From contig JAKLJL010000015.1 of NCBI GenBank assembly GCA_023151185.1, positions 1-50,491 on the forward strand: DNA of 50,491 bases. The letters are read 5' to 3'. Source of the stretch: Bacteroidota bacterium (GTDB taxonomy: Bacteria; Bacteroidota; JABWAT01). This document shows, in pieces, positions 6,140 to 21,690 of the stretch (its first letter is position 1; each line of letters begins with the position of its first letter). The notes below the pieces were generated by a model. It saw only the letters and a program-made list of their open reading frames with translations, did not search any database and had not been told where the DNA came from. Position numbers and translations under genes: made by a program.

Positions 6140-6263
6140 AAATTATCGTTTTTGGCGATTAAAAACACAAAAAACACCGGAAATCCGGGTCAAATTCCGG
6201 AAAAAGTGATGAAAACCGGTCATTTGAGTTTACATCTGACTTTTAACCTTTCAGGAGAAAACA

Positions 6264-13669: not shown

Positions 13670-15139
13670 ATGAAATCTGTTTTGGTTATCGGGTCCGGTT
13701 TTGCCGGACTCACCGCTGCTGCTCTTCTGGCCCGGGATGGCTACCGGGTTACCCTCCTCGAAAAAAATGATCAGCCCGGCGGACGGGCCCGGGTCTGGAA
13801 AAAAGACGGGTTCACCTTTGATATGGGTCCGTCCTGGTACTGGATGCCCGAAGTCTTTGAGGAAACTTTTGCTCTGTTCGGCAGAAAGACCTCAGACTTT
13901 TATGAACTTGTCCGGCTGGATCCGGCCTACCGGGTTTATTTCGGTGACGGAGATGTGGTGGATGTTCCGGCCGGGATGAAAGAACTGGAAGCCCTGTTCG
14001 AGTCTCTGGAACCGGGATCCGTCCCGAAACTCAGGGAATTCCTGGCCCAGGCTGAGTACAAATACCGGGTCGGTGTCGGCGATTATGTGCACCGGCCGTC
14101 TCACTCCATTACCGAATTCATTGATTTCAAGGTCCTCAGGGAAAGCCTCAGAATTCAGTTGTTCTCTTCCATCCGAAGCCACATCCGGTCCTTGTTCCGG
14201 CATCCCCACCTCATTCGGCTGCTGGAATTCCCGGTACTTTTTCTCGGATCAACTCCCGGGAAAACGCCGGCCATGTACTCCATGATGAATTATGCCGATC
14301 TGGTTCTGGGAACCTGGTATCCGAAAGGCGGGATGGTTCGGGTAGTCGAAGCCCTGGTCAGTCTGTGCAAAGAGTATGGGGTCGATATCCGCCTGAATCA
14401 TGAAGTGAAAAGCATGAAAGTCTTTGCCGGAAAAATTACCTCAGTCGAAACGACTGCCGGATCCTTTTCGGCAGATGTGGTGATTGCGGGAAGTGACTAT
14501 CAGCATACCGATCAGCAGCTTTTGCCAGAAGGCTGGAAGGGATATTCCCCGCAGTACTGGGAATCCAGGACGATGTCGCCGTCAAGTCTGCTTTTTTTTC
14601 TGGGCCTGGATAAAAAACTGGAAAAGATGGCGCATCATACCCTGTTTTTTGATGAAGACTTTGACCGCCATGCCGATGCGATTTATGACCACCCCAGGTG
14701 GCCGGAACGGCCTTTGTTTTACACGTCTGTTCCCTCCCGGACCGATGGGTCGATTGTACCCGAAGGAAAGGAAAGTCTGTTTGTTCTGATCCCGCTTGCA
14801 CCGGGACTTCAGGATTCTGAGACGGAACGGGAAGCTTATTACCACCTGGTCATGGACCGTTTGGAACGCCTGACCGGGCAAAAGGTACGGGATCATGTCG
14901 TCGTTAAAAGAAGTTATGCCATGGCCGACTTTACCGCCGATTATCACTCGTTTAAGGGAAATGCCTACGGGTTGGCCAACACCCTGCCGCAGACGGCGGT
15001 TTTTAAACCCAAGCTGAAGGCAAAAAAGATAAAGAATCTGTGGTATACCGGGCAGCTTACAGTTCCGGGACCCGGCGTCCCGCCGTCTCTGATTTCCGGA
15101 CGGATCGTGGCAGAGGAAGTAAAAAAGTCTTTCCGGTAA
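13670..15139 (+). CDS. crtI: Phytoene desaturase family FAD oxidoreductase (CrtI type)
   Basis: This 489-residue enzyme carries the N-terminal FAD-binding fold VLVIGSGFAGLTAAALLARD with the acidic end of the second strand at VTLLEK and the adjacent GGRARVW. FDMGPSWYWMP follows, and the C-terminal signature is YTGQLTVPGPGVPPSLISGR, both characteristic of bacterial CrtI-type carotenoid desaturases. The expected role is to introduce double bonds into phytoene or a related C30/C40 carotenoid at the membrane. No crtB, crtY or other carotenoid gene lies beside it, so a different substrate in the same family (for example an apocarotenoid or another polyene) is possible. There is no strong ribosome site at the ATG. 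The family is secure; the specific desaturation is inferred. Confidence 0.85.
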   Translation: MKSVLVIGSGFAGLTAAALLARDGYRVTLLEKNDQPGGRARVWKKDGFTFDMGPSWYWMPEVFEETFALFGRKTSDFYELVRLDPAYRVYFGDGDVVDVPAGMKELEALFESLEPGSVPKLREFLAQAEYKYRVGVGDYVHRPSHSITEFIDFKVLRESLRIQLFSSIRSHIRSLFRHPHLIRLLEFPVLFLGSTPGKTPAMYSMMNYADLVLGTWYPKGGMVRVVEALVSLCKEYGVDIRLNHEVKSMKVFAGKITSVETTAGSFSADVVIAGSDYQHTDQQLLPEGWKGYSPQYWESRTMSPSSLLFFLGLDKKLEKMAHHTLFFDEDFDRHADAIYDHPRWPERPLFYTSVPSRTDGSIVPEGKESLFVLIPLAPGLQDSETEREAYYHLVMDRLERLTGQKVRDHVVVKRSYAMADFTADYHSFKGNAYGLANTLPQTAVFKPKLKAKKIKNLWYTGQLTVPGPGVPPSLISGRIVAEEVKKSFR

Positions 15140-15205
15140 CGCCGTGGCTGGACTTTCGGGGTCAAAACAGGAAAACGGCCGGTTTTCTTCCTACCTTTGC
15201 ACCCT

Positions 15206-16348
15206 ATGCAAAAACTGACCTTTGATTTACTGAAAACGGATCCTGACGGATCAAAAGCCCGTGCAGGAGTTATTCACACCAGCCGCGGGGATATTGAAAC
15301 TCCTATTTTTATGCCGGTCGGAACCCGGGCAACCGTGCGTGGAGTTCCGGAACGGGACCTGCAGGCTGCCGGGGCCCAGATTATTCTAGGCAACACTTAC
15401 CACTTATATCTACGCCCGGGAAATGAGGTCCTGAAATCGCAGGGCGGGCTGCACCGGTTTAATGCCTGGCCAAAACCTATTCTGACCGATTCGGGCGGCT
15501 ATCAGGTTTTTTCCCTGTCTGAACTGAGAAAACTGACCCCCGACGGAGTGACCTTCCGGTCTCATATTGATGGGTCGTCGCATTACTTTACCCCCGAGAA
15601 TGTTATCGAAACCCAGCGGGCTATCGGGTCGGATATCATGATGGTGCTGGATGAGTGTCCGCCACACCCGTGCGACCATCTGTATGCCAAAAAGTCGAAT
15701 GAAATTACTATGAAATGGGCAAAACGGTGCCAGACCGCCGTTCAAAATTCAGAACCGCTGTATGGCCACCACCAGGCCCTTTTCCCCATTGTTCAGGGAT
15801 CTGTTTTCCGGGATCTACGGGAATATTCGGCGAAAACGCTGGTGGATATGGAGTTTGAAGGGTATGCCATCGGCGGACTTTCAGTCGGGGAACCCATCCC
15901 GCTGATGTATGAATTTACGGATTTCACCACGGACTTTTTGCCCGTGAACAAGCCCCGTTACCTGATGGGGGTTGGAACACCGGCCAATATTCTGGAAGGA
16001 ATTGCCCGCGGTGTGGATATGTTTGATTGTGTAATGCCCACCCGTAACGGCCGGAATGCGACGTTGTTTTCCCGAAACGGAGGGATGAACATCCGCGGTG
16101 CCCGGTACATCAATGACTCCTCGCCCATCGACGAAGACTGTACCTGTTATGCCTGCCGGACCTATTCCCGATCTTACATCCGGCATTTGTTCACTGTCCA
16201 GGAAATGCTCGGGCCCATGCTGGCCAGCATCCACAACATTCACTTTTACCTCTGGCTGGTAAAAGAGGCCCGCAAACATATTCTGGATGGGACCTGGGCC
16301 ACCTGGTACCCGGGAATGGTTGAAATTGTCGGGGGGAAGCTGCCCTGA
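15206..16348 (+). CDS. tgt: tRNA-guanine transglycosylase
   Basis: A 380-residue Tgt, which exchanges guanine 34 of GUN-anticodon tRNAs for preQ1 in queuosine synthesis. The nucleophile/acid region ILTDSGGYQVFSLSELRK, the substrate pocket VLDECPP and QGSVF-DLR, AIGGLSVGE, and the second catalytic aspartate in MFDCVMPTRNGRNA are intact. The zinc site is CTCYACRTYSRSYIRHLF (Cys-x-Cys-x2-Cys and a later His in SIHNIHF). The ATG at 15206 replaces an upstream TTG because homologues begin near MQKLTFDLL. A TACCTTTG promoter-like box (15192-15199) ends seven bases before this ATG and there is no ribosome site, so the mRNA may be leaderless. Confidence 0.95.
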   Translation: MQKLTFDLLKTDPDGSKARAGVIHTSRGDIETPIFMPVGTRATVRGVPERDLQAAGAQIILGNTYHLYLRPGNEVLKSQGGLHRFNAWPKPILTDSGGYQVFSLSELRKLTPDGVTFRSHIDGSSHYFTPENVIETQRAIGSDIMMVLDECPPHPCDHLYAKKSNEITMKWAKRCQTAVQNSEPLYGHHQALFPIVQGSVFRDLREYSAKTLVDMEFEGYAIGGLSVGEPIPLMYEFTDFTTDFLPVNKPRYLMGVGTPANILEGIARGVDMFDCVMPTRNGRNATLFSRNGGMNIRGARYINDSSPIDEDCTCYACRTYSRSYIRHLFTVQEMLGPMLASIHNIHFYLWLVKEARKHILDGTWATWYPGMVEIVGGKLP

Positions 16349-16412
16349 GACCCAGGAGCGGAAAAACCTGAGTTTCAGGAGTAACCTCATTTTTTGGATA
16401 AGTTGTCCTGTT

Positions 16413-16424
16413 TTTAACGTTAAA
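16413..16424. promoter_or_regulatory. 12-base palindrome ahead of the restriction-modification gene
   Basis: TTTAACGTTAAA is perfectly self-complementary and lies 20 bases before the start codon at 16445. It could be an operator, but palindromes this short also arise by chance, and no controller-protein gene is present. Confidence 0.25.
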
Positions 16425-16444
16425 CCGATCAGGTATTAAAAGGA

Positions 16445-18820
16445 ATGAAATACCAAAACATCCGCGAAGAGGAACTTAAAAACAAAATAGCCAAGGATTA
16501 TTTCTGGCTATATGATTGTACCAAAATCATTGGGAATGTTGACTTTTGTGTCTGTTTTCACCAAAGCCAACCCGAGTTGTTTGAACGGGAGTTCTTACTT
16601 TGGGCAGAGGCAAAAACCGGCTCTTCGGATATTTATAAATCGATTGTTCAGCTAATCCTGACAATTGGAAAAGCCAGAACCTTTGATAAATTCTTACCAC
16701 CTGCGATGCTGGGTGCTTTTGATTTTGAAAAAATTGCGTTTATTCACTACAACGATATTCACGAAGTCTTTTACCAAAACGACTTTAACTGGAATGTTAC
16801 TCCGTCGGACCATGATTCGAAAGAATTTAAACTGCTACTTGAAAAAGTAAAGAAAATGATAGACAGCAAAGCTCTGCTCTTTACCTATCTTAGAGATGAC
16901 AGGGAACTGACGTCATTTATCAAAAAGAATTTTGTTGTGGGAAAGTTCGGGCTGACCAAAACCCGGATTGACAAAAACAATTTTATGGTCATTTACAACA
17001 AATGGCTCCAGATCGTGAAACCCACCATCGCAGTAAATTGGGATGCAGCCAAAAGAAACGGAATAATTGACGGCGACTTTTATCTGGCAGATCTGCTGTC
17101 CCATGAAAATACTACTCTAAAGGAAAAATTGTTCGTTTTGCTCCATCTCGACCATTATGAACTGGACCGCCGGATTGACGAGGCGGGAATGTTCAGCAGT
17201 AAGAGAACCGATTTTAAGGACGGGCAGGTTGCCCATACTCAATTCTGGAATAAATATGAACGGCCACCGAAAGAGGAGTATTGGGATTATATCGTCGAAC
17301 GCCGTGATTTATTGGTTCCACAGGATGTCAGGGAAAGGAAGGGGAGTTTTTTTACGCCTCAGATTTGGGTGGAACTTTCGCAAAAATACCTGACAGACGT
17401 TTTGGGCGAAGACTGGCAGGATGAGTACACCGTTTGGGACTGCGCGGCTGGTACCGGGAATCTGCTTGCCGGGCTTACCAATAAATACAATATATGGGCC
17501 TCAACCCTGGACCGGCAGGATGTTGAAGTTATGCACGACCGGATTAAAAACGGTGCAAACCTGCTTGACGACCATGTTTTTCAGTTTGATTTTCTGAACG
17601 ATGACTTCAGCAAACTGCCTGCACCCCTGCAGGCTATTATCACTGACCCTAAAAAAAGAAAGAAATTGGTCATTTACATCAATCCGCCTTATAAAAGAGG
17701 ATTGGGTGTCGCGAATACAAATTGGCATATTGCGGAAATGGGTGAAGCAAAGGATGAATTATATATTCAATTTTTGTATAGAATAAAATCAGAAATTAGT
17801 GGATGCAAATTGGGTGTTTTCTCAAAGCTTAAGTTACTTAATGCCCCTGATTTTGAGACTATGAGGCAAGTATTTCAGGTAAAACTCGAAACACTTTTTG
17901 TTATGCCCGCAAATACATTTGATAATGTGAATGGAAAATTTCCGATTGGGTTTCAAATTTATGACTTGGGGAAAAAAGAAGTTTTTAATTCTATTAACTC
18001 AGATGTTTATGATGAAGATAGAAACTTCATCGGAACAAAATTATTTTCAACTTACAACAATTCTGTTTTTCTAAATAAATGGCTCGGTACATATAAGGAC
18101 AATTCACATCCGATCGGTAAACTAATTTACAATAGCAATGATTTTCAACACCAAAATAGAATCAGGATTACGAATTTTGAAACAATAGTTTTAGGTGGTG
18201 ATGGGAAATTTAAGATTACAAAATCAAATTTATTGGTTGCTTGTGTCTACTTAACAATCCGGCATTGTATTGAAGCGACCTGGTTAAATGACCGAGACCA
18301 ATTTTTACAACCAAATAAAAATTGGGAGCATGACATGAACTTCCAAAGCAACTGCCTAATTTACTCTTTGTTTCACACTCAAAATAACATTTCAACAAGA
18401 GATTCAACCAACCACTGGATTCCATTCACTGAACAGGAAGTTAACGCCAGAGAAAAGTTTGAAAGCAATTATATGAGCCGGTTTATCTTGGGAAAACTCA
18501 GAAAAGAAGCCCAGGAAGGATTGTTCAGTGAGCAGGAAGAACGGACAGCACCGCTTGTCTTTTCACCGGAAGCAACAGCCGTTCTCGATTCGGGCAGGGA
18601 ATTGTGGAAATATTACCATCAGCAGCCCAATTGCAACGTCAATGCCTCATTGTATGACATCCGGGAGTATTTTCAGGGAAGAAATGAAACCGGGAAGATG
18701 AATTCAAAAAGCGGAGATGAACAGTATATGTCCCTTATTGGCAATTTAAGGGGAAATCTAAAGCTGCTGGCAGCTAAAATCGAGCCCAAAGTTTACGAAT
18801 ATGGCTTTTTAAGAAAATAA
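16445..18820 (+). CDS. Single-chain restriction-modification enzyme (type IIG-like, N6-adenine methylase)
   Basis: This 791-residue protein combines a nuclease-like N-terminus with an adenine methyltransferase. Residues ~30-75 read DF (33-34), WAEAK with Glu55 and Lys57, and a later Gln69, fitting a PD-(D/E)xK nuclease core. The methylase core has FTPQIWVEL (303-311, motif X-like), DCAAGTGN (332-339, motif I, SAM binding) and INPPY (412-416, motif IV, the amino-methylating signature). A C-terminal target-recognition region follows. It should cut and methylate the same DNA sequence, protecting against incoming DNA. No separate specificity or methylase gene is nearby, so one polypeptide does both. 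The stretch 17700-18420, after the NPPY motif, is markedly more AT-rich than the rest of the gene and of the window. The gene sits alone between tgt and a peptidase operon and ends at a terminator. Similar proteins occur in epsilonproteobacteria. The target site is unknown. Confidence 0.85.
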   Translation: MKYQNIREEELKNKIAKDYFWLYDCTKIIGNVDFCVCFHQSQPELFEREFLLWAEAKTGSSDIYKSIVQLILTIGKARTFDKFLPPAMLGAFDFEKIAFIHYNDIHEVFYQNDFNWNVTPSDHDSKEFKLLLEKVKKMIDSKALLFTYLRDDRELTSFIKKNFVVGKFGLTKTRIDKNNFMVIYNKWLQIVKPTIAVNWDAAKRNGIIDGDFYLADLLSHENTTLKEKLFVLLHLDHYELDRRIDEAGMFSSKRTDFKDGQVAHTQFWNKYERPPKEEYWDYIVERRDLLVPQDVRERKGSFFTPQIWVELSQKYLTDVLGEDWQDEYTVWDCAAGTGNLLAGLTNKYNIWASTLDRQDVEVMHDRIKNGANLLDDHVFQFDFLNDDFSKLPAPLQAIITDPKKRKKLVIYINPPYKRGLGVANTNWHIAEMGEAKDELYIQFLYRIKSEISGCKLGVFSKLKLLNAPDFETMRQVFQVKLETLFVMPANTFDNVNGKFPIGFQIYDLGKKEVFNSINSDVYDEDRNFIGTKLFSTYNNSVFLNKWLGTYKDNSHPIGKLIYNSNDFQHQNRIRITNFETIVLGGDGKFKITKSNLLVACVYLTIRHCIEATWLNDRDQFLQPNKNWEHDMNFQSNCLIYSLFHTQNNISTRDSTNHWIPFTEQEVNAREKFESNYMSRFILGKLRKEAQEGLFSEQEERTAPLVFSPEATAVLDSGRELWKYYHQQPNCNVNASLYDIREYFQGRNETGKMNSKSGDEQYMSLIGNLRGNLKLLAAKIEPKVYEYGFLRK

Positions 18821-18836
18821 ATTTTTCCGGAAAAGG

Positions 18837-18888
18837 AAGCACAACGGTCCCGGCCGGGGACATCTGCCGGAGTTCCGTTGTGCTTTTT
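18837..18888 (+). terminator. Rho-independent terminator after the restriction-modification gene
   Basis: AGCACAACGG (18838-18847) pairs with CCGTTGTGCT (18875-18884), with a long internally structured loop, followed by a short T-run (TTTT). It lies between convergent genes. Confidence 0.7.
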
Positions 18889-18895
18889 GGTGGGT

Positions 18896-20332
18896 TTACA
18901 GGTTGGGTACAGGTCCCAGAACATCATCCACGGTCAGAATCTGGATTTCCCCCAGATTCAATCCACGGAGTCCCGCTTCAATTTTTGCCCGGTCACCAAC
19001 TACCACTAAGGTGAGATTTTCCGGCCGGATGTAGGTTTTGGCAGCCTGGATAGCCTGATCGCGGGTAACCCCCAGAATTTTACCGGTGTACGTGTTGAAA
19101 TACTCACCCGGCAGGTTGTAAAAGACCTGATTTCCGATCTGATCGGCCACACTCTGAACATCTGCAAAGTCCGACGGGAAACTTAAGGCCACATAATTCC
19201 GGGCCCGGGTCATATCCTCTTCCCTGATGACCTGGATTCCGGTCAGCTCTTTCATAAACTGAAAGACTGCCGAATCGGTCACTTCGGTCTGTACCGCCGA
19301 GCCAGCCAGGAAAGCCCCCGTGTTTTTCATCAGTCCGAACCGTGAATTTGCCCCGTAAGCATAGCCATGTTCTTCCCGAATGTTCTGGTTCAGGCGGCTG
19401 GTGAAGGATCCGCCCAGAATCGTGTTCACCACGGTCAGGGTATAATAATCGGGTGTCATCCGGTTGACGCCGGGGTGCCCGATTCTGAGTTCAGTCTGGG
19501 CGGCACCCGGTTTATCAACCAGAATGATTTTGCGGGGTTTAAAAACCGGCACTTCAAGCTTAGGAGTTGCCAGTGCCCTGCCCGGTTTCAGTTTCCCGAA
19601 GGCGGCCTCCAGACGGGTCTTCAGATCCTTCGGGTCAAGCGCACCTGCCACGATCAGTGTTACATTTCCGGTGGTAAAAATTTTACCATGAAAGGCTTTC
19701 AGGTTACCGGTTGTGAAGCTTTTAAGGGTTGCTTCCGTACCGGCTGATGGCCTTCCCAGCGGATGGTTTTTTCCGAAGATCTGCTGGTTAAACGCCTGGG
19801 AGGCAATAACACGGGCTTCATCATGCTGCTGGCCGAGGGCAACCAGTTTGGAAGTCCGGGCCCGGTTCAGTTCATCTTCAGAAAATGCCGGGTAGAGTAC
19901 CACATCCCTCATCAGGTCCAGGGCAGCCGTCAGCCGGCTGACAGGTGCAAACAGGTTAACTCCCATTTGTTCCTGGCCTGACCAGGAGTCCAGCCGGATT
20001 CCCAGATAATCAATTTCGTCGGCAAGTTCAAGGGCTGTCCGTTTTCCTGCTCCTTCGGTCATCAGATCAGCGGTCAAAGAAGCAAGTCCGAGTTCAGAAT
20101 CCGCTTCAAAAATGGATCCGCCGTTGGCAATCAGGTTAATCTGAACCAGGGGAACCTGATCCTTTTTTACAAAATGGACTTTAATTCCGTTCGACAGAGT
20201 AAAAGATTCGGCAGCCGGTAACTTCAGCGGGTCGATTGGTCCCGGATCGGGTGCTTTCGACCGGTCGGGTGCCTGAGCAAAAGCGGTCAGGGAAAGAACG
20301 GATAGGGTAGTCAGAAATATCTGTCGTTTCAT
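18896..20332 (-). CDS. M16 peptidase-like protein, non-catalytic partner subunit
   Basis: A 478-residue exported protein with signal peptide MKRQIFLTTLSVLSLTAFAQ. It has the M16 (pitrilysin/insulinase) fold: FTLSNGIKVHFVKKDQVPLV opens the first domain and NTILGGSFTSRLNQNIREEHGYAYG marks the second. The HxxEH zinc motif is absent; the corresponding region reads LGLASLTADLMTEGAGKR. In two-chain M16B enzymes one subunit carries zinc and the other supplies the glycine-rich loop and the R/Y substrate pair, and this gene fits the second type. Its ATG overlaps the stop of the catalytic subunit by four bases. Substrate: probably short exported peptides, by family inference. Confidence 0.9.
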   Translation of the reverse strand: MKRQIFLTTLSVLSLTAFAQAPDRSKAPDPGPIDPLKLPAAESFTLSNGIKVHFVKKDQVPLVQINLIANGGSIFEADSELGLASLTADLMTEGAGKRTALELADEIDYLGIRLDSWSGQEQMGVNLFAPVSRLTAALDLMRDVVLYPAFSEDELNRARTSKLVALGQQHDEARVIASQAFNQQIFGKNHPLGRPSAGTEATLKSFTTGNLKAFHGKIFTTGNVTLIVAGALDPKDLKTRLEAAFGKLKPGRALATPKLEVPVFKPRKIILVDKPGAAQTELRIGHPGVNRMTPDYYTLTVVNTILGGSFTSRLNQNIREEHGYAYGANSRFGLMKNTGAFLAGSAVQTEVTDSAVFQFMKELTGIQVIREEDMTRARNYVALSFPSDFADVQSVADQIGNQVFYNLPGEYFNTYTGKILGVTRDQAIQAAKTYIRPENLTLVVVGDRAKIEAGLRGLNLGEIQILTVDDVLGPVPNL

Positions 20333-21690
20333 GGTTTCACCTCAGCAGGTTTCACGGCAAGATGGGTCGATCCTTTGGGAACGAAACTCAGCATCAGGCG
20401 TTTGTTTAAGTCAAGATAGGTGGCAGTAACCGACGAAATATCGCCGGTATCAACAGCCCGGTACCGGGCCAGGTCTTCATTCGCCCAGTCTGGATTTCCG
20501 GTAAACCGGAAGTAGTTGTTCATCAGGTCGGCCTTGGCTTCAATCGATTGAAACTGACTCAGAAAGTTCATTTCATACTGGTTTACCACCCGCTGAAGTT
20601 CCCGTTGTGACGGGGGTGTTGCCTTCAGCCGGGCTATTTCTTCATCAATGACGGTCCGGATCTGATCCAGACCAACGCCTGGCCGGGCGGTGGAAATAAG
20701 TATCAGTTGTGAGCCTAAAGCCCCCGAGTTCTGAAAAGCAGCAACATCCTGGGCAATCTGCAGGTCATAAACCAGCCGCTTGTACAGGCGGGAATTTTTT
20801 CCGCCGGCAAGAATCTGGGCAGTGATATCCATTTCAGCATCGCCGGGTGAATAAGACCGGGGTGATCTGAAGGCCATATACAGCCGGGGTAATTGAACAT
20901 TGTCTTCGACTGTGACGGTTTTGACACCGTTCAGCTCAAATTCTGGGGCATCCGGGCGGGTAACAGACTCTCCGGCCGGAACGTCCCGGAACCAGTTTTC
21001 AGCCAGTTTTCTCGCCTCTTCAGTTTTAATTGCCCCCGAAATCACAAGTGCTGCATTGTTCGGACGGTAATACTTCTTGAAAAATTCAACCACATCGTCA
21101 TAGGAAGCCGCCGTTAAATCTTCCATATAGCCGATAACCGGCCAGTTGTAAGGGTGGTTTTTCGGATAGAATTCGGTGGCCAGATACTGCCAGGCAAGTC
21201 CGTAAGGGCGGTTTTCATACGATTGCCGGCGTTCATTTTTCACCACATCCCGCTGGCCGTCAACCTTGCCGGGAGACATGGCTTTCAGCAGATGCCCCAT
21301 CCGGTCTGATTCCAGAAACAAGGCCAGGCTGACAGCGTTTGAGGGGACGGTTTCGTAATAATTCGTCCGGTCATTTGATGTTGAGCCGTTGTTGCTTCCG
21401 CCGGCTCCTTCGAGCAGGTTGTCGAAGTCGCCTTCTTTTACGTTGCCGGATCCTTCAAACATGATGTGTTCAAACAGGTGGGCAAATCCGGTTCTGCCGG
21501 ACTTTTCATACGAAGATCCGACATGATACCAAACATTGACGGCAACCATCGGGGTCGAAAAATCTTCATGGACAATGACCGTAAGTCCATTGTCGAGGGT
21601 GAACCGGGTAAAAGGCAGGGCCAGCCTGCTGTCCTGTGCCATCGCCGGAAAGGCAGCTGTCAGAAGCAGGGGAATGAGCAGTCGTTTCAT
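20329..21690 (-). CDS. M16 zinc peptidase, catalytic subunit
   Basis: A 453-residue exported protein with signal peptide MKRLLIPLLLTAAFPAMAQ. It carries the inverted zinc motif HLFEH in GFAHLFEHIMFEGSGN and a downstream glutamate in the helix FLESDRMGHLL region, as in pitrilysin-family enzymes. The second domain has AQILAGGKNSRLYKRLVYD. It should hydrolyse peptides in the periplasm, paired with the following gene. It lies 26 bases after the S9 peptidase gene, and the three genes form a peptidase operon. Confidence 0.92.
   Translation of the reverse strand: MKRLLIPLLLTAAFPAMAQDSRLALPFTRFTLDNGLTVIVHEDFSTPMVAVNVWYHVGSSYEKSGRTGFAHLFEHIMFEGSGNVKEGDFDNLLEGAGGSNNGSTSNDRTNYYETVPSNAVSLALFLESDRMGHLLKAMSPGKVDGQRDVVKNERRQSYENRPYGLAWQYLATEFYPKNHPYNWPVIGYMEDLTAASYDDVVEFFKKYYRPNNAALVISGAIKTEEARKLAENWFRDVPAGESVTRPDAPEFELNGVKTVTVEDNVQLPRLYMAFRSPRSYSPGDAEMDITAQILAGGKNSRLYKRLVYDLQIAQDVAAFQNSGALGSQLILISTARPGVGLDQIRTVIDEEIARLKATPPSQRELQRVVNQYEMNFLSQFQSIEAKADLMNNYFRFTGNPDWANEDLARYRAVDTGDISSVTATYLDLNKRLMLSFVPKGSTHLAVKPAEVKP

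What the first reader, a model, noticed from the sequence alone, without database searches (positions are those of the whole stretch)
16445..18820. Single-chain restriction-modification enzyme with an AT-rich recognition region
The nuclease-like (D33, E55, K57) and adenine-methylase (motif I, NPPY) parts are on one 791-residue chain. From about 17700 to 18420 the DNA is clearly more AT-rich and almost free of CCGG (one in 17701-18300), unlike its own flanks. This suggests the target-recognition part was exchanged by recombination.
Basis: partly seen in the sequence, partly recalled or inferred. Interest (0 to 1): 0.55.

Follow-up and report, generated by a model that had tools for sequence, protein, structure and literature searches.

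The report
Restriction enzyme with swappable recognition cassette
This gene looks like a one-protein bacterial enzyme that both cuts and marks DNA, and in its relatives the DNA-reading part is a cassette exchanged by recombination, so one enzyme body could be re-aimed at different DNA sequences.

Summary
The 791-residue ORF at 16445-18820 has the build of a single-chain Type IIG restriction-modification enzyme: PD-(D/E)XK nuclease (D33, E55, K57 invariant in 78 aligned members), spacer, gamma-class adenine methylase, recognition region, conserved C-terminus. No library model reached its cut-off. The AT-rich stretch is real and coincides with an exchange cassette, residues 417-607, 3' edge up to 660 (window 17693-18265/18424). 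In six pairs of relatives or tandem copies DNA identity is 0.93-1.00 at residues 400-409, 0.40-0.56 at 420-429, and recovers by 660. Over 82 sequences cassette and backbone similarity are uncorrelated (Mantel r 0.01). Two corrections: CCGG is no scarcer than composition predicts; and AT-richness alone does not show a swap, since cassette synonymous sites are AT-rich in 77 of 82 members and Type I HsdS recognition domains behave alike (10 of 10 against hsdM). A swap on this copy's own branch is unresolved: its four cassette carriers plus L064 are not one backbone clade (p 0.0003), but grouping it with L002/L064 is not rejected (p 0.46). Some relatives have tandem copies with divergent cassettes, three lacking the nuclease. 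Activity and target are untested.

The parts
16445..18820 (+). Single-chain Type IIG-like restriction-modification gene, 791 aa
   Evidence: ORF; 294 relatives in genome contigs, best 80 kept, 57-78% identity; folds
16445..16957 (+). N-terminal PD-(D/E)XK nuclease domain, residues 1-171
   Evidence: AF2 of residues 1-290 alone; VIA-align nearest BpuSI 3s1s Z 7.9 (132 aligned, 3.6 A) and DrdV 7lvv Z 7.4 (116 aligned, 3.2 A), model ranges 1-168 and 1-171
16541..16615 (+). Nuclease active-site codons D33 (16541-16543), E55 (16607-16609), K57 (16613-16615)
   Evidence: Invariant in the 78-row alignment
16958..17314 (+). Spacer, residues 172-290, mixed helices and strands
   Evidence: AF2 secondary structure; hardly covered by the fold matches
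17438..17461 (+). Methylase motif I, DCAAGTGN (residues 332-339)
   Evidence: G336-N339 invariant; methylase fold over about 294-540
17681..17692 (+). Methylase motif IV, NPPY (413-416); the 5' cassette edge follows it
   Evidence: Invariant; swap-pair protein identity 0.97 at 409-416, 0.34 at 417-424
17693..18265 (+). Exchangeable recognition cassette, residues 417-607 (second half of methylase domain plus first part of recognition region); AT-rich
   Evidence: Hot spot; DNA breakpoints; GC3 dip; discordant trees
18266..18424 (+). Zone in which the 3' cassette edge falls in different pairs, residues 608-660
   Evidence: Graded recovery of identity, fading GC3 dip
18425..18817 (+). Conserved C-terminal part, residues 661-791, ending in a long helix; follows the backbone
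   Evidence: Swap-pair identity 0.61-0.94 in most blocks, lowest 0.45 at 697-704; AF2 helix 759-785
18837..18885 (.). Inverted repeat (11-bp arms 18837-18847 and 18875-18885) followed by a T run: likely terminator between the convergent genes
   Evidence: Read directly from the sequence; a shorter stem is flagged on the - strand

Best explanation
The gene is a self-contained Type IIG restriction-modification enzyme of a family that the searched libraries do not cover. Shown: one chain holds a PD-(D/E)XK-fold nuclease with invariant D/E/K, a gamma-class adenine-type methylase, a recognition region and a conserved C-terminus; in related genes residues 417 to 607-660 are replaced as a block between near-identical flanks. 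Inferred: the recognition region binds an asymmetric DNA site; the methylase marks an adenine in it, protecting host DNA; the N-terminal nuclease cuts unmodified DNA at a fixed distance. Because one recognition region serves both activities, replacing the cassette by homologous recombination in the conserved flanks (methylase motifs X to IV on the 5' side, the 'ATWLNDRDQFL' to 'HWIPFT' stretch on the 3' side) changes the target of cutting and marking at once, without a lethal mismatch. The edge right after NPPY makes sense if the part after the catalytic motif also touches the site. The cassette's AT-richness is a family-wide property of recognition modules, not a fresh import mark.
For: Invariant catalytic residues in 78 rows. 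Folds: whole model BpuSI E 1.5e-11, with CamA, M.BseCI, DrdV, LlaBIII and MmeI further down; VIA-align DrdV Z 17.9, BpuSI Z 16.4 (their rmsd near 13 A I take to reflect domain orientation); nuclease part alone BpuSI Z 7.9, DrdV Z 7.4, then DpnI at 5.4. Exchange: L002/L064 backbone 99%, cassette 43%, DNA 97.3% identical up to residue 416 and 89.9% again from about residue 607, with only a 65% stretch of 278 nt between; six pairs break between residues 410-419 and 420-429; 24 of 27 pairs with backbone >= 0.84 have cassette < 0.5, Mantel r 0.012, p 0.39. Trees: cassette clade Q+L002+L003+L004 (SH-aLRT 100), which with L064 added is rejected on the backbone (p-AU 0.0003); Q with its backbone neighbours L005/L007/L014 is rejected on the cassette (p-AU 0.00015). 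Neighbours: the only neighbour recurring in more than 4 of 80 loci is another copy of itself. MmeI's methylase-domain residues Lys487, Ser488 and Lys489 contact site base pairs (PMC4833311, passages).
Against: No activity, methylation or specificity data. The window copy's own swap is unresolved: the backbone does not reject Q+L002+L064 (p 0.46) or Q+L004 (p 0.17), although it rejects Q+L003+L006 (p 0.01); the 26-row backbone tree has only 3 of 23 starred branches. Foldseek with the nuclease domain alone found nothing at E <= 0.001, a Z of 7-8 is in the range that can be uninformative, and an unrelated lipoprotein (3n2q, Z 5.0) stands fourth in the VIA list; the assignment rests on the two top matches together with the invariant D/E/K. 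pTM is only 0.62-0.64. Many relatives are MAG contigs, so host names and a few junctions may be wrong.
Confidence: 0.85

Rival explanations
1. The hot spot is fast divergence by point mutation under diversifying selection, without block exchange.
For: Blocks 426-600 are among the least conserved (pair identity 0.24-0.50 in six of seven 25-residue blocks), and recognition domains are expected to diversify.
Against: Abrupt identity steps at the same place in six pairs while flanking DNA stays near-identical; similar cassettes on unlike backbones (51 pairs with cassette >= 0.65 have mean backbone 0.71, all pairs 0.69); backbone and cassette groupings rejected reciprocally.
Confidence: 0.05
2. The AT-rich dip marks a recent import of this cassette from an AT-rich donor into this genome.
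For: The query's methylase-minus-cassette GC3 difference is 0.26, family mean 0.13; 8 of 81 relatives are as large. Cassette GC3 tracks backbone GC3 with slope 0.43 only, the C-terminus with slope 1.02.
Against: Fourfold-site GC is lower in the cassette than in the backbone in 77 of 82 members, and HsdS recognition domains in other genomes show the same, so the dip does not date or prove a swap here. The nearest cassettes found are only 71-76% identical.
Confidence: 0.3
3. The protein is now mainly a methylase and the N-terminal domain is vestigial or regulatory.
For: Nuclease-less family members exist (L023b, L057b, L069b).
Against: D33, E55, K57 and Q69 are invariant in the 78-row alignment and present in all 14 tandem copies that carry the N-terminal domain.
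Confidence: 0.1

Closest known systems
Type IIG enzymes BpuSI and DrdV (PDB 3s1s, 7lo5/7lvv)
   Same: N-terminal nuclease, spacer, gamma-class adenine methylase, recognition region on one chain; among the top fold matches of the whole model and first for the nuclease part
   Different: 791 residues against 870 and 1011-1016 in the listed full-length chains; the single sequence hits no PDB sequence; the exchange cassette starts inside the methylase domain
Single-chain Type IIG methylases of Helicobacter pylori with exchangeable TRDs (PMC10423294, passages)
   Same: TRDs within the methylase chain recombine between shared backbones (three backbones among seven TRDs)
   Different: Within one species there; here across records titled as many Bacteroidota and other phyla. 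A 44%-identical relative lies on H. pylori plasmid pUM157; identity with the published backbones was not tested
MmeI / Type IIL family (PMC4833311, passages)
   Same: One recognition part serves cutting and marking; widely diversified specificities; fold match 5hr4
   Different: No MmeI model among Pfam matches; here diversity comes at least partly by block exchange
Type I systems with duplicated, distinct hsdS genes (PMC7394358, abstract and outline)
   Same: Adjacent copies with shared conserved DNA and different recognition regions
   Different: Here whole R-M genes or nuclease-less copies are duplicated in the same direction; no inversion shown
Eco57I-type systems, bifunctional enzyme plus separate methylase (PMC3874165, passages)
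   Same: Full enzyme with adjacent methylase-only gene in L023, L057, L069
   Different: Those methylase-only copies carry a different cassette from their neighbour (identity 0.40, 0.48, 0.37); the window gene has no companion

Membership tests
Type IIG restriction-modification enzyme | Nuclease and methylase on one chain | tested here: met
   One ORF with both by sequence and fold; invariant D/E/K and motif I/NPPY
Type IIG restriction-modification enzyme | N-terminal PD-(D/E)XK cleavage domain of about 200 aa | tested here: met
   D33/E55/K57 invariant; nearest folds BpuSI and DrdV nuclease ends, Z 7.9 and 7.4; Foldseek alone not significant
Type IIG restriction-modification enzyme | Gamma-class methylase (motif X before I, then IV, TRD after) | tested here: met
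   GSFFTP at 300-305 (taken as motif X), motif I 332-339, NPPY 413-416; Type I M subunits align 295-540, M.TaqI 302-631
Type IIG restriction-modification enzyme | Cuts at a fixed distance from its recognition site | not testable with these tools
   No biochemical or methylome data
MmeI / Type IIL family | Sequence membership of the MmeI family | tested here: inconclusive
   No MmeI model among Pfam matches; general fold shared
Type ISP enzyme (LlaGI/LlaBIII) | Helicase/translocase between nuclease and methylase | tested here: not met
   Only about 120 residues (172-290) lie between the two; no helicase model in Pfam
BcgI-like Type IIB | Separate S subunit gene beside the RM gene | tested here: not met
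   Flanking genes are tgt and an M16-type peptidase gene (names by recall); no S-like recurrent neighbour among the clusters listed for 80 loci
Phase-variable (switching) R-M locus | Repeats or a second copy that could recombine in the same genome | tested here: not met
   One copy in the genome; only short chance-like repeats in 16000-19200. Other members do have tandem copies

The most novel reading that the evidence does not exclude
DNA-recognition modules of restriction enzymes, whether inside single-chain Type IIG enzymes or as Type I HsdS domains, share a synonymous-site AT bias that follows the exchanged module and not sequence variability, and is only weakly tied to host composition. 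This would fit a pool of recognition cassettes that circulates semi-independently of the enzyme bodies or escapes GC-biased repair because it seldom pairs with a homologue. In this family the cassette also carries half of the catalytic fold and moves between nuclease-bearing and nuclease-less bodies in tandem arrays, giving one locus several specificities.
Probability: 0.35. Interest if true: 0.6.

Novelty: new member of a known kind. Interest (0 to 1): 0.42.

Why it matters
Enzymes that cut and mark through one recognition region can change target in a single recombination event. This family supplies mapped cassette edges, near-identical natural backbones carrying divergent cassettes (L002/L064, L072a/b), and tandem arrays with different cassettes: ready material for learning which residues read which bases and for building enzymes with new targets. 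No model in Pfam, NCBIfam, PADLOC or PHROGs matched the window protein above a cut-off or convincingly, so annotation built on these would be expected to miss the gene. The AT bias shared with HsdS, if general, would be a simple sequence mark of exchanged recognition modules and calls for an explanation.

Tried and rejected
CCGG depletion: rejected, 1 seen against 0.39-0.57 expected. CCGG abundance in the flanks: not special under a maximal-order model.

Rab GTPase matches of the profile in the PDB (110 sequences at E <= 1, 60 shown, E 0.00065-0.045): judged spurious. All but one of the 60 shown are small-GTPase chains falling at profile positions of about 480-630, no such fold is among the fold-search rows shown, and the best has 21.7 bits. 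Weak hits to MAD2 (E 0.0019, 16.6 bits, cut-off 720), N6_Mtase (14.5 bits, cut-off 20.4) and PADLOC MTase_II (E 0.058) lie on the general methylase motif.

Empty site: not obtainable. tgt and the M16-type gene are not neighbours in the two same-genus genomes, so the gene lies at a synteny break. No flanking repeats of note in 16000-19200; no RNA family in 14000-21000.

Query-specific swap: four further held groups on the backbone: p 0.026 with L006 added, 0.46 with L002/L064, 0.01 with L003/L006, 0.17 with L004. I do not claim the swap on this branch.

HsdS control: a first try on 30 short loci gave a hsdM partner in only 3. Repeated on 20 longer stretches, all taken from high-scoring PF01420 matches: 10 had a hsdM by my motif criterion and in all 10 the recognition-domain GC3 was lower; 17 had a hsdR-like ORF and in all 17 the recognition domain was lower (the 17 counted by me from its rows). 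Genes were picked by motifs, not curated.

Tandem pairs as fixed functional pairs: not shown. Of the nuclease-less copies only L023b shares a cassette at >= 0.6 with another tandem copy (L077a, 0.83). A BLAST reading of 79.5% DNA identity in the L023 pair was replaced by codon alignment of residues 302-416, 98.3%.

A first AU test on 80 rows did not finish and was repeated on 26 chosen rows, with quick trees. The group tested on the backbone came from the cassette tree (plus L064), the group tested on the cassette from the backbone tree.

Rows left out of the main 82-row alignment: L038 (interrupted ORF), L001 and L082 (the query itself); of the 78-row alignment: also L016, L036, L037, L070; of the trees: L037 and L070. 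Only 80 of 294 relatives were fetched.

Paper searches were read as listings; passages were read in seven papers, an outline in one, and passages in two more to check a possible earlier report of AT-rich recognition domains (none there; PMC3751577 explains the low GC of a whole Type IIG gene by possible horizontal transfer). REBASE was not available, so I cannot say that the family is undescribed.
Full report
What is there. The ORF 16445..18820 (+, ATG, 791 aa) lies between tgt and two convergent M16-type peptidase genes (gene names recalled from the sequences, relatives of both neighbours). It is the only copy in the 3.74-Mb assembly and is absent from two same-genus genomes and one same-family genome. 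In 394 genomes of the phylum 8 have a match, the query included; several of these are partial or weak. A scan of genome contigs found 294 relatives, of which the best 80 were kept, at 57-78% identity over nearly the full length in almost all; by record titles most are Bacteroidota, with others titled Ignavibacteria, several Pseudomonadota and Desulfobulbaceae, Phycisphaerales, and the chromosome of Candidatus Haliotispira prima (L069, a spirochaete by recall). Two viral-contig loci, 15 plasmids including H. pylori pUM157 (43.7%) and no phage record hold relatives. For the window protein Pfam, NCBIfam, PADLOC and PHROGs give nothing above a cut-off or better than E 0.0019. For ten further proteins (six family members, the nuclease-less L069b and three more distant relatives) the first three libraries gave nothing above a curated cut-off except a DUF559 insert in L087; PADLOC lists one 22-bit methylase match, for the distant relative L088.

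Anatomy. In 78 aligned rows D33, E55, K57, Q69, the motif I glycines, N413-P414-P415-Y416 and many others are invariant. AlphaFold2 gave pLDDT 84.3, pTM 0.62 for the whole protein and 82.2, 0.64 for residues 1-290. The whole model matches BpuSI (E 1.5e-11), CamA, M.BseCI, DrdV, LlaBIII and MmeI by Foldseek; VIA-align puts DrdV first (Z 17.9) and BpuSI sixth (Z 16.4), with Type I M subunits aligned over 295-540 and M.TaqI over 302-631. The N-terminal part alone has no Foldseek match at E <= 0.001, but VIA-align ranks the BpuSI and DrdV nuclease ends first (Z 7.9, 7.4); DpnI follows at 5.4, then at Z 5.0 and below a mixture of Holliday-junction resolvases, SPARDA nucleases, NucC and FokI with some unrelated chains. 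So: nuclease 1-171, spacer 172-290, methylase about 291-540, recognition region from about 540, C-terminal helices to 791. This is the Type IIG layout (PMC3874165, passages).

The exchange cassette. Mean pair identity over the family is 0.80-0.92 in 276-375, falls to 0.24-0.50 in six of the seven 25-residue blocks of 426-600 (0.65 at 476-500) and is 0.69 at 601-625. Backbone and cassette identities are uncorrelated over the 3321 pairs of 82 rows (Mantel r 0.012, p 0.39); 24 of the 27 pairs with backbone >= 0.84 have cassette < 0.5; 51 pairs with cassette >= 0.65 have a mean backbone of 0.71 against 0.69 for all pairs. L002 and L064 show it at DNA level: 97.3% identity up to locus position 6247 (residue 416), 89.9% again from 6822 (about residue 607), and only a 65% stretch of 278 nt between. 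Six pairs (L002/L064, L025/L083 and tandem pairs of L023, L057, L069, L072) have DNA identity 0.93-1.00 at residues 400-409 and 0.40-0.56 at 420-429, and recover between 608 and 660; further upstream single 10-residue blocks dip to 0.57 (L069) and 0.73 (L025/L083). In window coordinates the cassette is 17693 to 18265, with a 3' edge zone to 18424. It is thus not the C-terminus but an internal block: the methylase domain after NPPY plus the first part of the recognition region. That the methylase part travels with it is plausible, since MmeI uses methylase-domain residues Lys487-Lys489 to contact its site (PMC4833311, passages). Cassettes remain homologous (mostly 30-50% identical), so 'different cassette' here means divergent, not unrelated in fold.

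History of this copy. On the cassette the query groups with L002, L003 and L004 (SH-aLRT 100; path 0.27-0.35, next nearest 1.17). On the backbone its nearest rows are L005, L007 and L014, without a well-supported group. With 26 chosen rows, holding {Q, L002, L003, L004, L064} together is rejected on the backbone (p-AU 0.0003) and holding {Q, L005, L007, L014} together is rejected on the cassette (p-AU 0.00015). But the backbone does not reject {Q, L002, L064} (p 0.46) or {Q, L004} (p 0.17), while rejecting {Q, L003, L006} (p 0.01) and, more weakly, the six-row group (p 0.026). The cassette has therefore most likely moved among these four carriers; whether it moved into the query's own lineage is open.

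The AT-rich stretch. The dip is real and not an amino-acid effect. It is family-wide: fourfold-site GC is lower in the cassette than in the backbone in 77 of 82 members (means 0.24 against 0.36-0.41), and the aa-normalised GC3 deficit runs from 421 to 600 with a sharp 5' edge. Two other poorly conserved segments that are not exchanged, 126-150 and 676-704, are only a little low (GC3 0.31 and 0.32, against 0.24 in the cassette and 0.36 over residues 1-418; fourfold-site GC 0.37 and 0.35), so the dip follows exchange more than variability. Cassette GC3 depends on backbone GC3 with slope 0.43, the C-terminal part with slope 1.02. As an outside control, recognition domains of Type I HsdS in the same phylum had lower GC3 than hsdM in 10 of 10 loci (0.38 against 0.60) and lower than hsdR-like genes in 17 of 17, out of 20 stretches, with recognition-to-hsdM slope 0.61 and hsdR-to-hsdM slope 1.01 (nine loci). 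AT-richness is thus a general mark of recognition modules in this sample and cannot by itself show a recent swap. Paper searches listed nothing with this point in title or abstract start; the two papers that held 'lower GC content' beside all other terms do not report it in the passages seen; the rest I did not read through.

Tandem copies. Of 50 loci with at least 2.4 kb on both sides, 8 hold another family copy near the match (my count, leaving out L016, which is the same gene). In L023, L057 and L069 a 520-537-residue copy that starts shortly before methylase motif X and lacks the nuclease follows a full gene by 5, 1 and 7 nt. In L023, L057a/b and L072 adjacent copies share the methylase core (98.3, 98.6 and 98.8% DNA identity over residues 302-416); cassette identity between copies of one locus is 0.36-0.48 in every compared pair except L076, which is the reverse, cassette 0.97 with N-terminus 0.83. 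The L023b cassette, in a nuclease-less copy, is 83% identical to that of L077a, whose match reaches back at least to residue 149 before its contig ends. No other neighbour recurs in more than 4 of 80 loci; that one is an ABC-type ATPase by its sequence. The window gene has no tandem partner.

Comparison and verdict. It is built like, and by the features testable here is, a Type IIG enzyme. TRD exchange between shared backbones is already reported for single-chain Type IIG methylases of H. pylori (three backbones among seven TRDs; PMC10423294, passages) and for Type IIG S subunits (PMC3077401, passages); duplicated Type I hsdS genes are described in PMC7394358 (abstract and outline). What I found in no listing or passage seen are this family, a mapped cassette that begins inside the catalytic domain, the nuclease-less tandem partners with a different cassette and the shared AT bias; REBASE was not searched. 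Activity, methylated motif and cutting remain untested.

Noticed in passing
L087 268-3633 (-): A family member of 1121 aa carries an in-frame insert of about 295 aa near residue 691 that holds a DUF559 domain (Pfam E 8.4e-26) between repeats encoding SPLLEGTQGVF-like peptides.
   Followed up: partly
window 15197-20332: tgt and the M16-type peptidase gene, neighbours of the gene here, are not adjacent in two same-genus genomes, so the gene sits at a synteny break.
   Followed up: partly
L138-L157: Recognition domains of Type I HsdS have lower GC3 than the hsdM gene in 10 of 10 loci in which a hsdM was found, with a shallow dependence on hsdM composition.
   Followed up: partly
L076 1043-6023: Two tandem copies share a 97% identical cassette although their N-termini are 83% identical, which looks like local conversion of the cassette.
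   Followed up: no
L043 43-7430: Three family copies in one direction within 7.4 kb, each with a different cassette, plus a 200-aa ORF between the second and third; the first is cut by the end of the fetched stretch.
   Followed up: no
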